Origin: Mycobacterium lentiflavum
Lineage (GTDB): Bacteria; Actinomycetota; Actinomycetes; Mycobacteriales; Mycobacteriaceae
Length of the DNA: 64,000 bases
Assembly (NCBI RefSeq): GCF_022374895.2
Contig: NZ_CP092423.2
Span: forward strand, 434,001 to 498,000
Direction: 5' to 3'
Part shown: positions 52,315 to 60,254 of the stretch, piece by piece
Numbering within the stretch: position 1 is the stretch's first letter
Layout: the number at the start of each line of letters is the position of its first letter
The notes under the pieces: model-generated
What the model was told of the DNA's origin: nothing
The model's input: the letters and a program-made list of their open reading frames with translations, nothing else
Databases searched by the model: none
Made by a program: the position numbers and the translations under genes

Positions 52315-52328
52315 TTACCCTGGAGTCA
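52315..52328 (+). promoter_or_regulatory. near-match to the TTAC-N6-GTAA operator over the Rv0238-type tetR promoter
   Basis: TTACCCTGGAGTCA differs by one base from the TTAC-N6-GTAA pattern at fabG4/fadA2 and fadE5. It overlaps a TACCCT -10-like box and ends 37 bases before the tetR ATG. Confidence 0.5.
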
Positions 52329-52365
52329 GATTGACGGAGCCCGACGGGCTTGAAAGGGCGCAGCG

Positions 52366-52995
52366 ATGGCAGGTGGTACCAAGCGGCTACCGCGTGCTGT
52401 CCGGGAACAGCAAATGCTCGACGCGGCCGTGCAGATGTTCTCGGTCAACGGCTACCACGAGACGTCGATGGACACCATCGCCGCCGCGGCCGAGATTTCC
52501 AAGCCGATGCTCTACCTGTACTACGGCTCCAAAGAGGACTTGTTCGGCGCCTGCCTGAATCGCGAGATGACCCGGTTCATCGACGCGGTGCGCGCCGACA
52601 TCGACTTCAGTCAAAGCCCGAGGGACCTGCTGCGCAACACCATCGGGTCGTTCCTGCGTTACATCGACGCCAACCGAGCGTCCTGGATCGTGATGTACAC
52701 CCAGGCCATCAGCTCGCAGGCGTTTGCCCACACGGTGCGTGAGGGACGTGAGCAGATCATCGAGCTGGTGGCCGGCCTGGTGCGCGAAAACAGTCGCACG
52801 CCGCGCACGGATGCCGAGCATCAGATGATGGCCGTCGCGCTGGTGGGCGCCGGCGAGGCGATGGCCAACCGGCTGTCCACCGGCGACATCGACGTCGACG
52901 ATGCGGCCGAGCTGATGATCGACTTATTCTGGCACGGCCTTCGGGGCGTGCCGGTGGATCACGACGCCAGCGCCTCGACGCGCAATGCGGGCTAG
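52366..52995 (+). CDS. TetR-family regulator, Rv0238-type
   Basis: A 209-residue regulator (204 in Rv0238). The DNA-binding part is MLDAAVQMFSVNGYHETSMD, TIAAAAEISKPMLYLYYG and SKEDLFGACLNREM. The ligand domain includes FLRYIDANRASWIVMYTQAI. AAGGG lies 12 bases before the ATG. An imperfect copy of a palindrome found at fabG4/fadA2 and fadE5 covers its promoter, which would make this protein the natural candidate regulator of that fatty-acid module. That link is inference from a shared 14-base motif. It is 9 bases upstream of the CLC gene, so they are likely co-transcribed. Confidence 0.92.
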   Translation: MAGGTKRLPRAVREQQMLDAAVQMFSVNGYHETSMDTIAAAAEISKPMLYLYYGSKEDLFGACLNREMTRFIDAVRADIDFSQSPRDLLRNTIGSFLRYIDANRASWIVMYTQAISSQAFAHTVREGREQIIELVAGLVRENSRTPRTDAEHQMMAVALVGAGEAMANRLSTGDIDVDDAAELMIDLFWHGLRGVPVDHDASASTRNAG

Positions 52996-53004
52996 ATTCG
53001 TGCA

Positions 53005-58329: not shown

Positions 58330-58351
58330 GCGTGTTGTGCTGGTCGGGCCT

Positions 58352-60187
58352 TTAGAAGGCGGCCTCGTCCAGCTCCATGATGTCGTTGTCCAGCGTCTCG
58401 ATCACCTCGCGGGTGCCGGCCAACAGCGGCAGGAAGTTCTTCGCGAAGAACGACGCGACCGCGATCTTGCCCTCGTAGAAGGACCGCTCGGCACCACTGG
58501 CGCCGGCGTCGAGCGCCTGCACGGCCACCGCCGCCTGACGCTGCAGCAACCAGCCGATCACCAGGTCACCGACGCTCATCAGGAAGCGAACCGAACCCAG
58601 GCCCACCTTGTACAGGCTGGAGATGTCCTCCTGGGCGGCCATCAAGTAGCCGGTCAGGGTGGCGGCCATGGCCTGGACATCTTCGAGGGCCTTGGCCAGG
58701 TGCTCGCGCTCCGTCTTCAGCCGGCCGTTGCCGGCCTCGGCGTCGACGAACTTCTGGATCTGCTCCGACACGTGCGCGAGCGCCACACCCTTGTCGCGGA
58801 CGATCTTGCGGAAGAAGAAGTCCTGCGCCTGGATGGCCGTGGTGCCCTCGTAGAGGGAGTCGATCTTGGCGTCCCGGATGTACTGCTCGATCGGGTAGTC
58901 CTGCAAGAAGCCGGACCCACCGAACGTCTGCAGGCTCTCGGTCAGCTTCGCGTAGGCCTGCTCGGAGCCCACCCCCTTGACCACCGGCAGCATCAGGTCG
59001 TTGACCTTGACCGCCAGGTCGGCGTCCACCCCGTAGAGCGCCTCGGCGACAGCCGCGTCCTGGTAGGTCGCGGTGAACAGGTACAGCGCGCGCAGACCCT
59101 CGGCGTAGGCCTTCTGGGTCATCAGCGACCGGCGCACGTCCGGGTGGTGCGTGATGCTGACCCGCGGTGCGGTCTTGTCGGTCATCTGGGTCATGTCGGC
59201 GCCCTGCACGCGGGACTTCGCGTACTCCAGTGCGTTCAGGTAACCGGTGGACAGGGTGGCAATTGCCTTGGTGCCGACCATCATCCGGGCCATCTCAATG
59301 ACCTCGAACATCTGCGCGATGCCGTTGTGCACCTCGCCGACCAGCCAGCCCTTCGCGGGCACGTCGTGCTGACCGAACGACAGCTCACACGTCGCGGAGA
59401 CCTTCAGGCCCATCTTGTGCTCGACGTTGGTGACGAACACCCCGTTGCGCTCGCCGAGCTCGCCCGTTTCGTGGTCGAACAGGAACTTCGGCACGATGAA
59501 CAGCGACAGTCCCTTGGTGCCGGGGCCGGCACCCTCGGGGCGGGCCAGCACCAGGTGCACGATGTTCTCGAACAGGTCGTCAGAGTCGGCGGACGTGATG
59601 AACCGCTTGACTCCGTCGATGTGCCAGGAGCCGTCCTCCTGCTGGACCGCCTTGGTACGGCCGGCGCCGACATCCGAGCCGGCGTCCGGCTCGGTCAGCA
59701 CCATGGTCGCGCCCCAGCCGCGCTCGGCGCACATCACGGCCCACTTCTTCTGCTCCTCGGTACCGAGGTGGTAGATGATGTTCGCGAAGCCGGCGCCGCC
59801 GGCGTACATCCACACCGCCGGGTTGGCGCCGAGGATGTGCTCGTGCAGGGCCCACACCAGCGCCTTGGGCATCGGCATGCCGCCCAGCACCTCGTCGATG
59901 CCGGCCTTGTCCCAGCCGGCCTCGGTCACGGCGCGAACGGACTTCTTGAAGGACTCGGGCAGGGTAACCGCGTGAGTCTTCGGGTCGAACACCGGCGGAT
60001 TGCGGTCGCCGTCGACGAACGACTCGGCGACCGGCCCCTCGGCCAGCCGGCTCATTTCGGTAAGCATTTCTTGGGCGGTGTCGGCATCGAGGTCGCTGAA
60101 TGCGCCTTGGCCGAGCGCCTGGTCAACGCCCAACACCTCGAACAGGTTGAATACCTGGTCACGGACGTTGCTCTTGTAGTGGCTCAC
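58352..60187 (-). CDS. fadE5: FadE5, acyl-CoA dehydrogenase with broad chain-length range
   Basis: A 611-residue acyl-CoA dehydrogenase, the same length as M. tuberculosis FadE5. It begins MSHYKSNVRDQVFNLFEVLG. FAD and substrate motifs are MVLTEPDAGSDVGAGRTK and WHIDGVKRFITSADSDDLF; the catalytic Glu is in IDSLYEGTTAIQAQDFFF. A C-terminal helical extension (about 130 residues) is typical of this long class. The frame opens at 60214, but GTG 60187 with GGAGGAG upstream is the right start. A TTAC-N6-GTAA palindrome lies 54 bases upstream, shared with fabG4/fadA2. In M. tuberculosis FadE5 accepts short to long saturated acyl-CoAs, by published work as I remember it. Confidence 0.96.
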   Translation of the reverse strand: MSHYKSNVRDQVFNLFEVLGVDQALGQGAFSDLDADTAQEMLTEMSRLAEGPVAESFVDGDRNPPVFDPKTHAVTLPESFKKSVRAVTEAGWDKAGIDEVLGGMPMPKALVWALHEHILGANPAVWMYAGGAGFANIIYHLGTEEQKKWAVMCAERGWGATMVLTEPDAGSDVGAGRTKAVQQEDGSWHIDGVKRFITSADSDDLFENIVHLVLARPEGAGPGTKGLSLFIVPKFLFDHETGELGERNGVFVTNVEHKMGLKVSATCELSFGQHDVPAKGWLVGEVHNGIAQMFEVIEMARMMVGTKAIATLSTGYLNALEYAKSRVQGADMTQMTDKTAPRVSITHHPDVRRSLMTQKAYAEGLRALYLFTATYQDAAVAEALYGVDADLAVKVNDLMLPVVKGVGSEQAYAKLTESLQTFGGSGFLQDYPIEQYIRDAKIDSLYEGTTAIQAQDFFFRKIVRDKGVALAHVSEQIQKFVDAEAGNGRLKTEREHLAKALEDVQAMAATLTGYLMAAQEDISSLYKVGLGSVRFLMSVGDLVIGWLLQRQAAVAVQALDAGASGAERSFYEGKIAVASFFAKNFLPLLAGTREVIETLDNDIMELDEAAF

Positions 60188-60240
60188 TACTCTCCTCCTC
60201 GTTGAGAATGCCACGCTGTGGTTGAGTACTTTGGACTAAG

Positions 60241-60254
60241 TTACCCACCAGTAA
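60241..60254. promoter_or_regulatory. TTAC-N6-GTAA operator upstream of fadE5
   Basis: TTACCCACCAGTAA, extended to GTTAC-N6-GTAAC at 60240-60255, lies 54 bases upstream of the fadE5 GTG. It has the same layout as the site between fabG4 and fadA2. Confidence 0.65.

What the first reader, a model, noticed from the sequence alone, without database searches (positions are those of the whole stretch)
52315..60254. A shared 14-bp palindrome suggests a fatty-acid regulon run by the Rv0238-type TetR
Seen: TTACTGCAGAGTAA in the fabG4/fadA2 promoter (56619-56632), TTACCCACCAGTAA before fadE5 (60241-60254) and TTACCCTGGAGTCA over the -10 region of the TetR gene (52315-52328). The first two fit TTAC-N6-GTAA exactly; the third differs by one base. 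fadE5, htdX, fabG4 and fadA2 together code for a full set of beta-oxidation-type steps. Inference: the TetR protein represses itself and this module, probably responding to an acyl-CoA. I do not know a published regulon of this description.
Basis: partly seen in the sequence, partly recalled or inferred. Interest (0 to 1): 0.72.

Follow-up and report, generated by a model that had tools for sequence, protein, structure and literature searches.

The report
Two-code operators of mycobacterial fat burning

Summary
The three sites are real. Inside one window they are barely above chance, but conservation settles it: the fabG4/fadA2 site is exact in 68 of 68 assessable mycobacterial loci, the fadE5 site in 50 of 50. 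I add that the sites are of two kinds. Class A, C-TTAC-N6-GTAA-G (fabG4/fadA2, a fadE24-like gene; degenerate at the TetR gene), goes with FdmR: 88 copies in 46 FdmR genomes (control 14), 7 in 75 without it (control 15), most of the excess in the mycobacterial family. Class B, R-TTAC-N6-GTAA-Y (fadE5, etfBA, etfD, efpA, part of desA3), sits upstream of fadE5 in 109 of 109 genomes at one mismatch or fewer, 65 without detected FdmR. Something else must read class B there. In 7 of 8 FdmR-less genomes searched deeply the closest FdmR relative is a FasR-like TetR, and the FasR crystal oligo carries similar half-sites. That assignment is inference.

The parts
52366..52995 (+). TetR-family regulator, very probably FdmR (Rv0238-type)
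   Evidence: TetR_N and TetR_C_46; best NCBIfam hit FasR at 105 bits, far below its 330-bit cut-off; solved relative 3f1b, E 1.9e-66; 80 related loci. Name FdmR = Rv0238 from a PMC12403877 passage
52315..52328 (+). Putative self-operator TTACCCTGGAGTCA, degenerate class A
   Evidence: <=1 mismatch in 39 of 81 TetR upstream regions, shuffles about 1%
54282..55127 (-). htdX-like MaoC-domain hydratase
   Evidence: Pfam MaoC_dehydratas
55199..56560 (-). fabG4-like 3-oxoacyl reductase
   Evidence: NCBIfam NF006110 694 bits, above cut-off
56618..56633 (.). Class A operator CTTACTGCAGAGTAAG between divergent fabG4 and fadA2
   Evidence: exact 14-mer in 68 of 68 loci, C..G flank in 68 of 68
56690..58039 (+). 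fadA2-like thiolase
   Evidence: NCBIfam NF006740 754 bits, above cut-off
58352..60187 (-). fadE5-like acyl-CoA dehydrogenase
   Evidence: Pfam acyl-CoA dehydrogenase domains; match in 113 of 121 genomes of the order
60240..60255 (.). Class B operator GTTACCCACCAGTAAC upstream of fadE5 (gene strand: GTTACTGGTGGGTAAC)
   Evidence: 14 of 14 bases invariant in 50 of 50 mycobacterial loci; 109 of 109 order genomes examined have a site at <=1 mismatch
60263..60268 (-). Possible -10 hexamer of fadE5 (TATATT), 8 bp upstream of the class B operator
   Evidence: read from the sequence; no start site measured

Best explanation
The TetR gene is very probably fdmR, the published long-chain-acyl-CoA-responsive repressor of fatty-acid degradation, and the window carries two related but different operator palindromes: class A (C-TTAC-N6-GTAA-G) at fabG4/fadA2, degenerate at the TetR gene itself, which goes with FdmR across genomes, and class B (R-TTAC-N6-GTAA-Y) at fadE5, which is kept across the order with or without detected FdmR and is therefore likely read by a second, older acyl-CoA-sensing TetR, predicted to be FasR-like. 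Shown here: the two classes, their conservation and their genome distribution. Taken from the literature: FdmR is Rv0238, responds to long-chain acyl-CoA, and controls fadE5. Inferred: when acyl-CoA is scarce the dimers would sit on the operators, over the divergent fabG4/fadA2 promoters and near the fadE5 start site, and block transcription; acyl-CoA would release them, switching on beta-oxidation and its electron-transfer partners (etfBA, etfD). In mycobacteria FdmR probably acts at class B promoters too.
For: Conservation: fabG4/fadA2 68 of 68 and fadE5 50 of 50 exact. Upstream sites (exact; <=1 mismatch): fadE5 88 and 109 of 109 order-wide, etfB 29 and 30 of 30, fadE24-like 25 and 29 of 29, desA3-like 24 and 29 of 30, etfD 18 and 19 of 28, efpA 16 and 24 of 28; reversed control 0 in every set, shuffles at most 0.92 on average. 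Flank code: C..G in 68 of 68 fabG4/fadA2 and 25 of 25 fadE24-like sites; R..Y in 99 of 108 order-wide fadE5, 29 of 29 etfB, 36 of 36 etfD, 15 of 16 efpA and 12 of 24 desA3 sites. Class A 16-mer: 88 sites, 27 of 46 FdmR genomes (control 14) against 7 sites, 6 of 75 other genomes (control 15) (Fisher p 2e-9 for genomes with a site, not corrected for kinship). fadA2 site exact in 20 of 41 FdmR genomes, all 20 with C..G, and in 2 of 23 others, both with G..C. fadE5 site at <=1 mismatch in 44 of 44 and 65 of 65. FdmR identity and signal. A FasR-like TetR next to a DUF3107 gene in 9 of 9 genomes searched deeply, 8 of them without FdmR (FasR model scores of five).
Against: No binding was measured. 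A paper passage names FdmR as key regulator of fadE5, so in mycobacteria one protein may read both classes and the split may only be a preference. The class A excess comes mainly from the mycobacterial family f1 (68 sites in 15 genomes, control 3); in the other 31 FdmR genomes it is 20 against a control of 11. The exact fadA2 site is in 15 of 15 (f1), 4 of 4 (f12) and 1 of 1 (f5) FdmR genomes but in 0 of 10 (f14) and 0 of 11 (f15); f15 has FdmR with a G..C-flanked self-site, TTACTCTGGCGTAA. None of the 10 exact mycobacterial self-sites has the full C..G flank, and 6 of 10 same-genus FdmR genes show no self-site. One of the three class A 16-mers of this genome stands at an unrelated TetR (L096). 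The fadE5 site is more often exact in FdmR genomes (43 of 44) than in the others (45 of 65), which favours some FdmR input. FdmR-less means no match at E 1e-25 with at least 40% identity, at most 25 candidates scored per genome; only nine genomes were searched deeper. FasR as class B reader rests on half-site likeness and kinship alone; my order-wide FasR search did not complete.
Confidence: 0.6

Rival explanations
1. One regulator, FdmR, reads all sites in mycobacteria; the C..G versus R..Y flank only tunes affinity. In FdmR-less relatives another TetR took over the old fadE5 operator.
For: A passage cites FdmR as key regulator of fadE5. FdmR and FasR-like proteins share the S-K-P-x-x-Y recognition-helix core in 10 of 10 aligned sequences. 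The G019 FdmR has two self-sites whose cores (TTACTGGCGGGTAA, TTACCGGCAGGTAA) are of the fadE5 type. The fadE5 site is more often exact where FdmR is present.
Against: Flank classes separate by target in mycobacteria; class A is at or below control level in FdmR-less genomes while the fadE5 site is present in all 65 examined.
Confidence: 0.3
2. Class B is read by an order-wide TetR that is neither FdmR nor FasR.
For: No FdmR or FasR binding data for class B were seen here. Unrelated TetR genes with local TTAC-N6-GTAA sites exist (L096, L148, L150), so the half-site is not private to FdmR and FasR. In one of the eight FdmR-less genomes searched deeply (G033) the closest FdmR relative is not the FasR-like one.
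Against: In the other seven the closest FdmR relative is FasR-like, and the FasR crystal oligo contains TACTGGCGAGT, 11 consecutive bases of class B sites such as those of L396, L399 and L407.
Confidence: 0.25
3. The palindromes are chance or generic promoter sequence.
For: Weak enrichment inside one window and for the plain N6 pattern in this genome.
Against: Conservation counts with zero in the reversed control and in neighbouring control genes.
Confidence: 0.01

Closest known systems
FdmR regulon (Rv0238; Dong et al. 2021, paper not held, known here only from its reference entry, and citing passages)
   Same: TetR-family repressor of fatty-acid degradation genes including fadE5; long-chain acyl-CoA signal
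   Different: I could not read whether that paper reports this motif, a self-site, the two flank classes or the presence of class B without FdmR
FasR (Rv3208), acyl-CoA-sensing TetR activator of fas-acpS (PMC7382501, passages)
   Same: Best NCBIfam match of the window TetR; similar half-sites in the crystallised oligo; acyl-CoA effector
   Different: Window TetR scores 105 bits against a 330-bit cut-off and lacks the DUF3107 neighbour; in the crystallised FasR oligo the half-sites are spread over 25 bp, not a 14-bp palindrome
MadR (Rv0472c), acyl-CoA-responsive repressor of desA1/desA2 (PMC8872791, passages)
   Same: Mycobacterial TetR tied to acyl-CoA and lipid genes
   Different: Consensus TCTGTG-N7-GT, not TTAC-N6-GTAA
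MftR (PMC8728441, passages)
   Same: TetR tied to long-chain acyl-CoA effectors
   Different: Operator T-N2-GGCA-N5-TGCC-N2-A and other targets
E. coli FadR logic (recalled, from no call)
   Same: One acyl-CoA sensor that activates synthesis and represses degradation; what FasR would do if it reads class B
   Different: GntR family, unrelated protein and operator

Membership tests
FdmR (Rv0238) | Orthologue of Rv0238 in the nagZ-tetR-htdX-fabG4-fadA2-fadE5 neighbourhood | tested here: inconclusive
   68 of 81 loci hold the TetR with divergent fabG4 and fadA2 starts, but no sequence labelled Rv0238 was fetched; the Rv gene order is recalled
FdmR (Rv0238) | Represses fatty-acid degradation genes | not testable with these tools
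   Reported in cited passages
FdmR (Rv0238) | Responds to long-chain acyl-CoA | not testable with these tools
   Reported in a cited passage
FdmR (Rv0238) | Operator goes with the regulator gene across genomes | tested here: met
   For class A only: 88 sites in 46 FdmR genomes (control 14), 7 in 75 without (control 15), mostly from family f1, and 0 of 21 exact fadA2 sites in FdmR families f14 and f15. Class B does not follow FdmR
FasR (Rv3208) | NCBIfam FasR equivalog cut-off 330 bits | tested here: not met
   105.4 bits
FasR (Rv3208) | Adjacent DUF3107 gene, as for the FasR-like TetRs seen here | tested here: not met
   Neighbours in the window are nagZ-like and ClC-like genes
MadR | TCTGTG-N7-GT consensus | tested here: not met
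   The three operators here are TTAC-N6-GTAA-like

The most novel reading that the evidence does not exclude
FasR-type TetRs are the order-wide master switch of fat metabolism: the sensor that turns fatty-acid synthesis on also shuts beta-oxidation (fadE5), its electron-transfer chain (etfBA, etfD) and part of the desaturase and efflux genes through class B operators, an actinobacterial counterpart of E. coli FadR. FdmR is a younger paralogue that specialised to a one-base-pair-shifted class A operator and took over fabG4/fadA2 and itself.
Probability: 0.25. Interest if true: 0.78.

Novelty: new variant of a known kind. Interest (0 to 1): 0.5.

Why it matters
The papers seen here treat FdmR as the key regulator of mycobacterial fatty-acid breakdown. 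If the fadE5/etf operator is older than FdmR and has a second reader, fatty-acid burning is controlled by at least two acyl-CoA sensors with distinguishable DNA codes. That would let old transcriptome data be re-sorted by operator class and gives a direct bench test (one outer base pair). It would also place ETF and EtfD, reported as required for beta-oxidation in M. tuberculosis (PMC8593149, abstract start, passages), under the same operator class as the dehydrogenase fadE5.

Tried and rejected
Chance: rejected by conservation. MadR and MftR as readers: their published consensus sequences differ. A fadA2-adjacent third TetR as the class B reader: in 13 of 13 FdmR-less fadA2 loci held with flanks, a TetR about 30% identical to the FasR-like ones lies divergent from fadA2 (one of them scored 87 bits on the FasR model). 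But exact class B sites occur there in only 2 of these 13 (G016, G044), while fadE5 keeps its site in the same families, so it is not a good candidate.

A covariation of the recognition-helix residue after S-K-P-x-x-Y with the flank (L with a C-flank in the exact self-sites of families f1 and f5; A with G..C flank in f15) is suggestive but rests on few independent lineages, and some mycobacterial self-sites with L carry g on the left. I do not rely on it.

An order-wide FasR presence search was asked three times and never answered; the last genome search went to the class A pattern instead. Literature: terms Rv0238; MadR; fadE5/fabG4/fadA2; FasR; FdmR/AccR; EtfD/fixA; fadE23/fadE24/efpA; beta-oxidation with Streptomyces; FdmR with mycobacter; FasR/FdmR/fadE5/desA3. 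No title or abstract start in these listings, some of them capped, announced the two flank classes; the library lacks most subscription journals. A blast of the TetR region against plasmid records gave nothing that I used.

Confidence went from 0.62 to 0.60 for the first of these.
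Full report
WHAT IS THERE. In this window alone they are not significant: 4 places at one mismatch or fewer, 2.14 expected, 16 of 100 shuffles as many. In the whole genome (6.16 Mb; the nearest named relatives of the TetR are M. triplex, 98%, and M. genavense, 97%) the plain pattern occurs 18 times against 11 for its reversed control. Fourteen of the 18 carry a pyrimidine and a purine as inner pair; TTACYN4RGTAA gives 14 against 5 here and 212 against 29 summed over 25 genomes.

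CONSERVATION. I fetched 80 loci around the TetR gene from mycobacterial genomes and, with the window, took regions upstream of homologous starts. The fabG4-fadA2 intergenic site is exact in 68 of 68 assessable loci (13 of 81 could not be assessed). The fadE5 site is exact in 50 of 50 (31 not assessable), with all 14 bases identical although its centre is not symmetric. The TetR site has 0 mismatches in 10, 1 in 29, 2 in 15 and 3 or more in 27 of 81; shuffles give about 1% at one or fewer. Control genes of the same loci: nagZ 0 of 66, htdX 0 of 73, frd-like 0 of 26; the dioxygenase gene divergent from fadE5 shares the fadE5 site (30 of 30) and is no control.

THE REGULATOR. The TetR has TetR_N and TetR_C_46 domains. 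Its nearest curated family is FasR at 105 bits, far under the 330-bit cut-off, so it is a paralogue and not FasR. A relative has a solved structure deposited only as TetR-like regulator, 3f1b. Papers identify FdmR as Rv0238 and as a long-chain-acyl-CoA-responsive repressor of fatty-acid degradation and modification genes (PMC12403877, passages), with fadE5 as a target (PMC9262360, passages). The original paper is not held.

A LARGER SET. Reading around listed sites in several genomes (the site list was cut) showed the same lipid genes again and again: fadE5, fadA2, electron transfer flavoprotein etfB, an EtfD-like iron-sulfur oxidoreductase, a fadE24-like acyl-CoA dehydrogenase, a desA3-like desaturase, efpA, and outside the genus crotonyl-CoA reductase-like genes; other neighbours look unrelated to lipids. 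Gene names beyond Pfam and NCBIfam hits are recalled from sequence likeness. Systematic counts of upstream regions (exact; one mismatch or fewer): etfB 29 and 30 of 30; fadE24-like 25 and 29 of 29; desA3-like 24 and 29 of 30; etfD 18 and 19 of 28; efpA 16 and 24 of 28; fadE5 over the whole order 88 and 109 of 109. The reversed pattern gave 0 in every set, other gap lengths (exact) 0, but for 1 of 109 in fadE5. Dropped rows: one fadE24-like and two efpA loci without a usable start, one short fadE5 region; one etfB genome had no locus. In G016, G017 and G019 the fadE5 gene was read earlier, all three with exact sites. The 18 etfD regions with exact sites carry tandem pairs 24-25 bp apart; fadE5 often has pairs, nearly all 23-26 bp apart.

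TWO CODES. The base pair outside the 14-mer splits the targets. Class A (C..G): fabG4/fadA2 68 of 68, fadE24-like 25 of 25. Class B (R..Y): fadE5 50 of 50 in the mycobacterial set and 99 of 108 order-wide, etfB 29 of 29, etfD 36 of 36, efpA 15 of 16; desA3-like is half R..Y and half T..C. The TetR self-sites are mixed: of 36 TTAC-N6-GTMA matches, 19 have C..G and 16 more have the class A base on one side, but none of the 10 exact TTACYN4RGTAA ones has the full C..G.

FdmR PRESENCE. In 121 genomes of the order, FdmR (E 1e-25 or better, at least 40% identity) is found in 46; a 47th genome matches only at 31%. The class A 16-mer occurs 88 times in those 46 genomes (control 14; 27 of 46 genomes) and 7 times in the other 75 (control 15; 6 of 75) (sums mine). 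Most of the excess is in family f1 (68 in 15 genomes, control 3); the other 31 FdmR genomes have 20 against 11. The fadA2 site is exact in 20 of 41 FdmR genomes, all 20 with C..G flank: 15 of 15 in f1, 4 of 4 in f12, 1 of 1 in f5, 0 of 10 in f14, 0 of 11 in f15. It is exact in 2 of 23 FdmR-less genomes, both with G..C flank; 6 of 70 fetched regions had no usable start and one genome was not fetched. One of those six, G047, does hold a class A 16-mer just upstream of fadA2. The fadE5 site is present at one mismatch or fewer in 44 of 44 FdmR genomes and 65 of 65 others; exact in 43 and 45. Fisher values ignore kinship. So class A goes with FdmR in most but not all FdmR families, and class B does not depend on it. 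Family f15 has FdmR but a G..C-flanked self-site, no class A 16-mer and one single-mismatch fadA2 site in 11.

WHO READS CLASS B. In nine genomes searched to low identity, a FasR-like TetR lies next to a DUF3107 gene in all nine (Pfam for eight); eight of the nine lack FdmR. It is the closest FdmR relative in seven of these eight; in G033 another TetR scores slightly better. Five such proteins, one of them from the FdmR-bearing G019, score 244-262 bits on the FasR model, under its 330-bit cut-off, which was set for mycobacteria by its name. FdmR and FasR-like proteins share the S-K-P-x-x-Y recognition-helix core. The oligo crystallised with FasR carries TACCCG and TACTGGCGAGT half-sites (PMC7382501, passages); the latter equals 11 bases of class B fadE5 sites in FdmR-less genomes. 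This makes FasR the leading candidate, no more than that. In 13 of 13 FdmR-less fadA2 loci another TetR stands divergent from fadA2: regulators change at fadA2 while the fadE5 operator stays.

MECHANISM. The class A operator lies between two divergent genes and could shut both. The class B operator lies 8 bp downstream of a -10-like TATATT of fadE5, near the likely start site (sequence). Both would be repressor positions; ligand release by acyl-CoA is from the literature. None of this was measured here.

VERDICT. Observation confirmed; the regulon idea is right but mostly published; the single-motif claim should be split in two. The presence of class B without detected FdmR is the new and testable part.

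Noticed in passing
L099 2551-2564 (own genome C1:1485550): Perfect 20-bp palindrome ATCTTACTCCGGAGTAAGAT upstream of a fadE24-like acyl-CoA dehydrogenase; class A site exact in 25 of 29 genus loci.
   Followed up: yes
L306-L333 (etfD upstream): Tandem class B pairs 24-25 bp apart in 18 of 28 genomes; one further genome has only a single-mismatch site and 9 of 28 have none, the window's own genome (L331) among them.
   Followed up: partly
L444-L473 (efpA upstream): TTACTGTARGGTAA about 20 bp before the efpA start in 16 of 28 loci; that efpA and fadE24 are isoniazid-induced is recalled, from no call.
   Followed up: partly
L489-L497, L499-L501, L503 (FdmR-less fadA2 loci): A TetR that is neither FdmR nor a close FasR lies divergent from fadA2 in 13 of 13 loci.
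   Followed up: partly
L103 3548: Class B-like site about 400 bp before a PfaA-like polyketide or PUFA synthase gene in the window's own genome (gene name from sequence likeness, recalled).
   Followed up: no
L096 1548: Class A 16-mer between an unrelated TetR gene and an oxidoreductase-like gene: other TetRs also use TTAC-N6-GTAA locally.
   Followed up: no
window 52366-52995: PDB 3f1b, deposited as TetR-like transcriptional regulator, appears to be a solved FdmR relative (E 1.9e-66).
   Followed up: no
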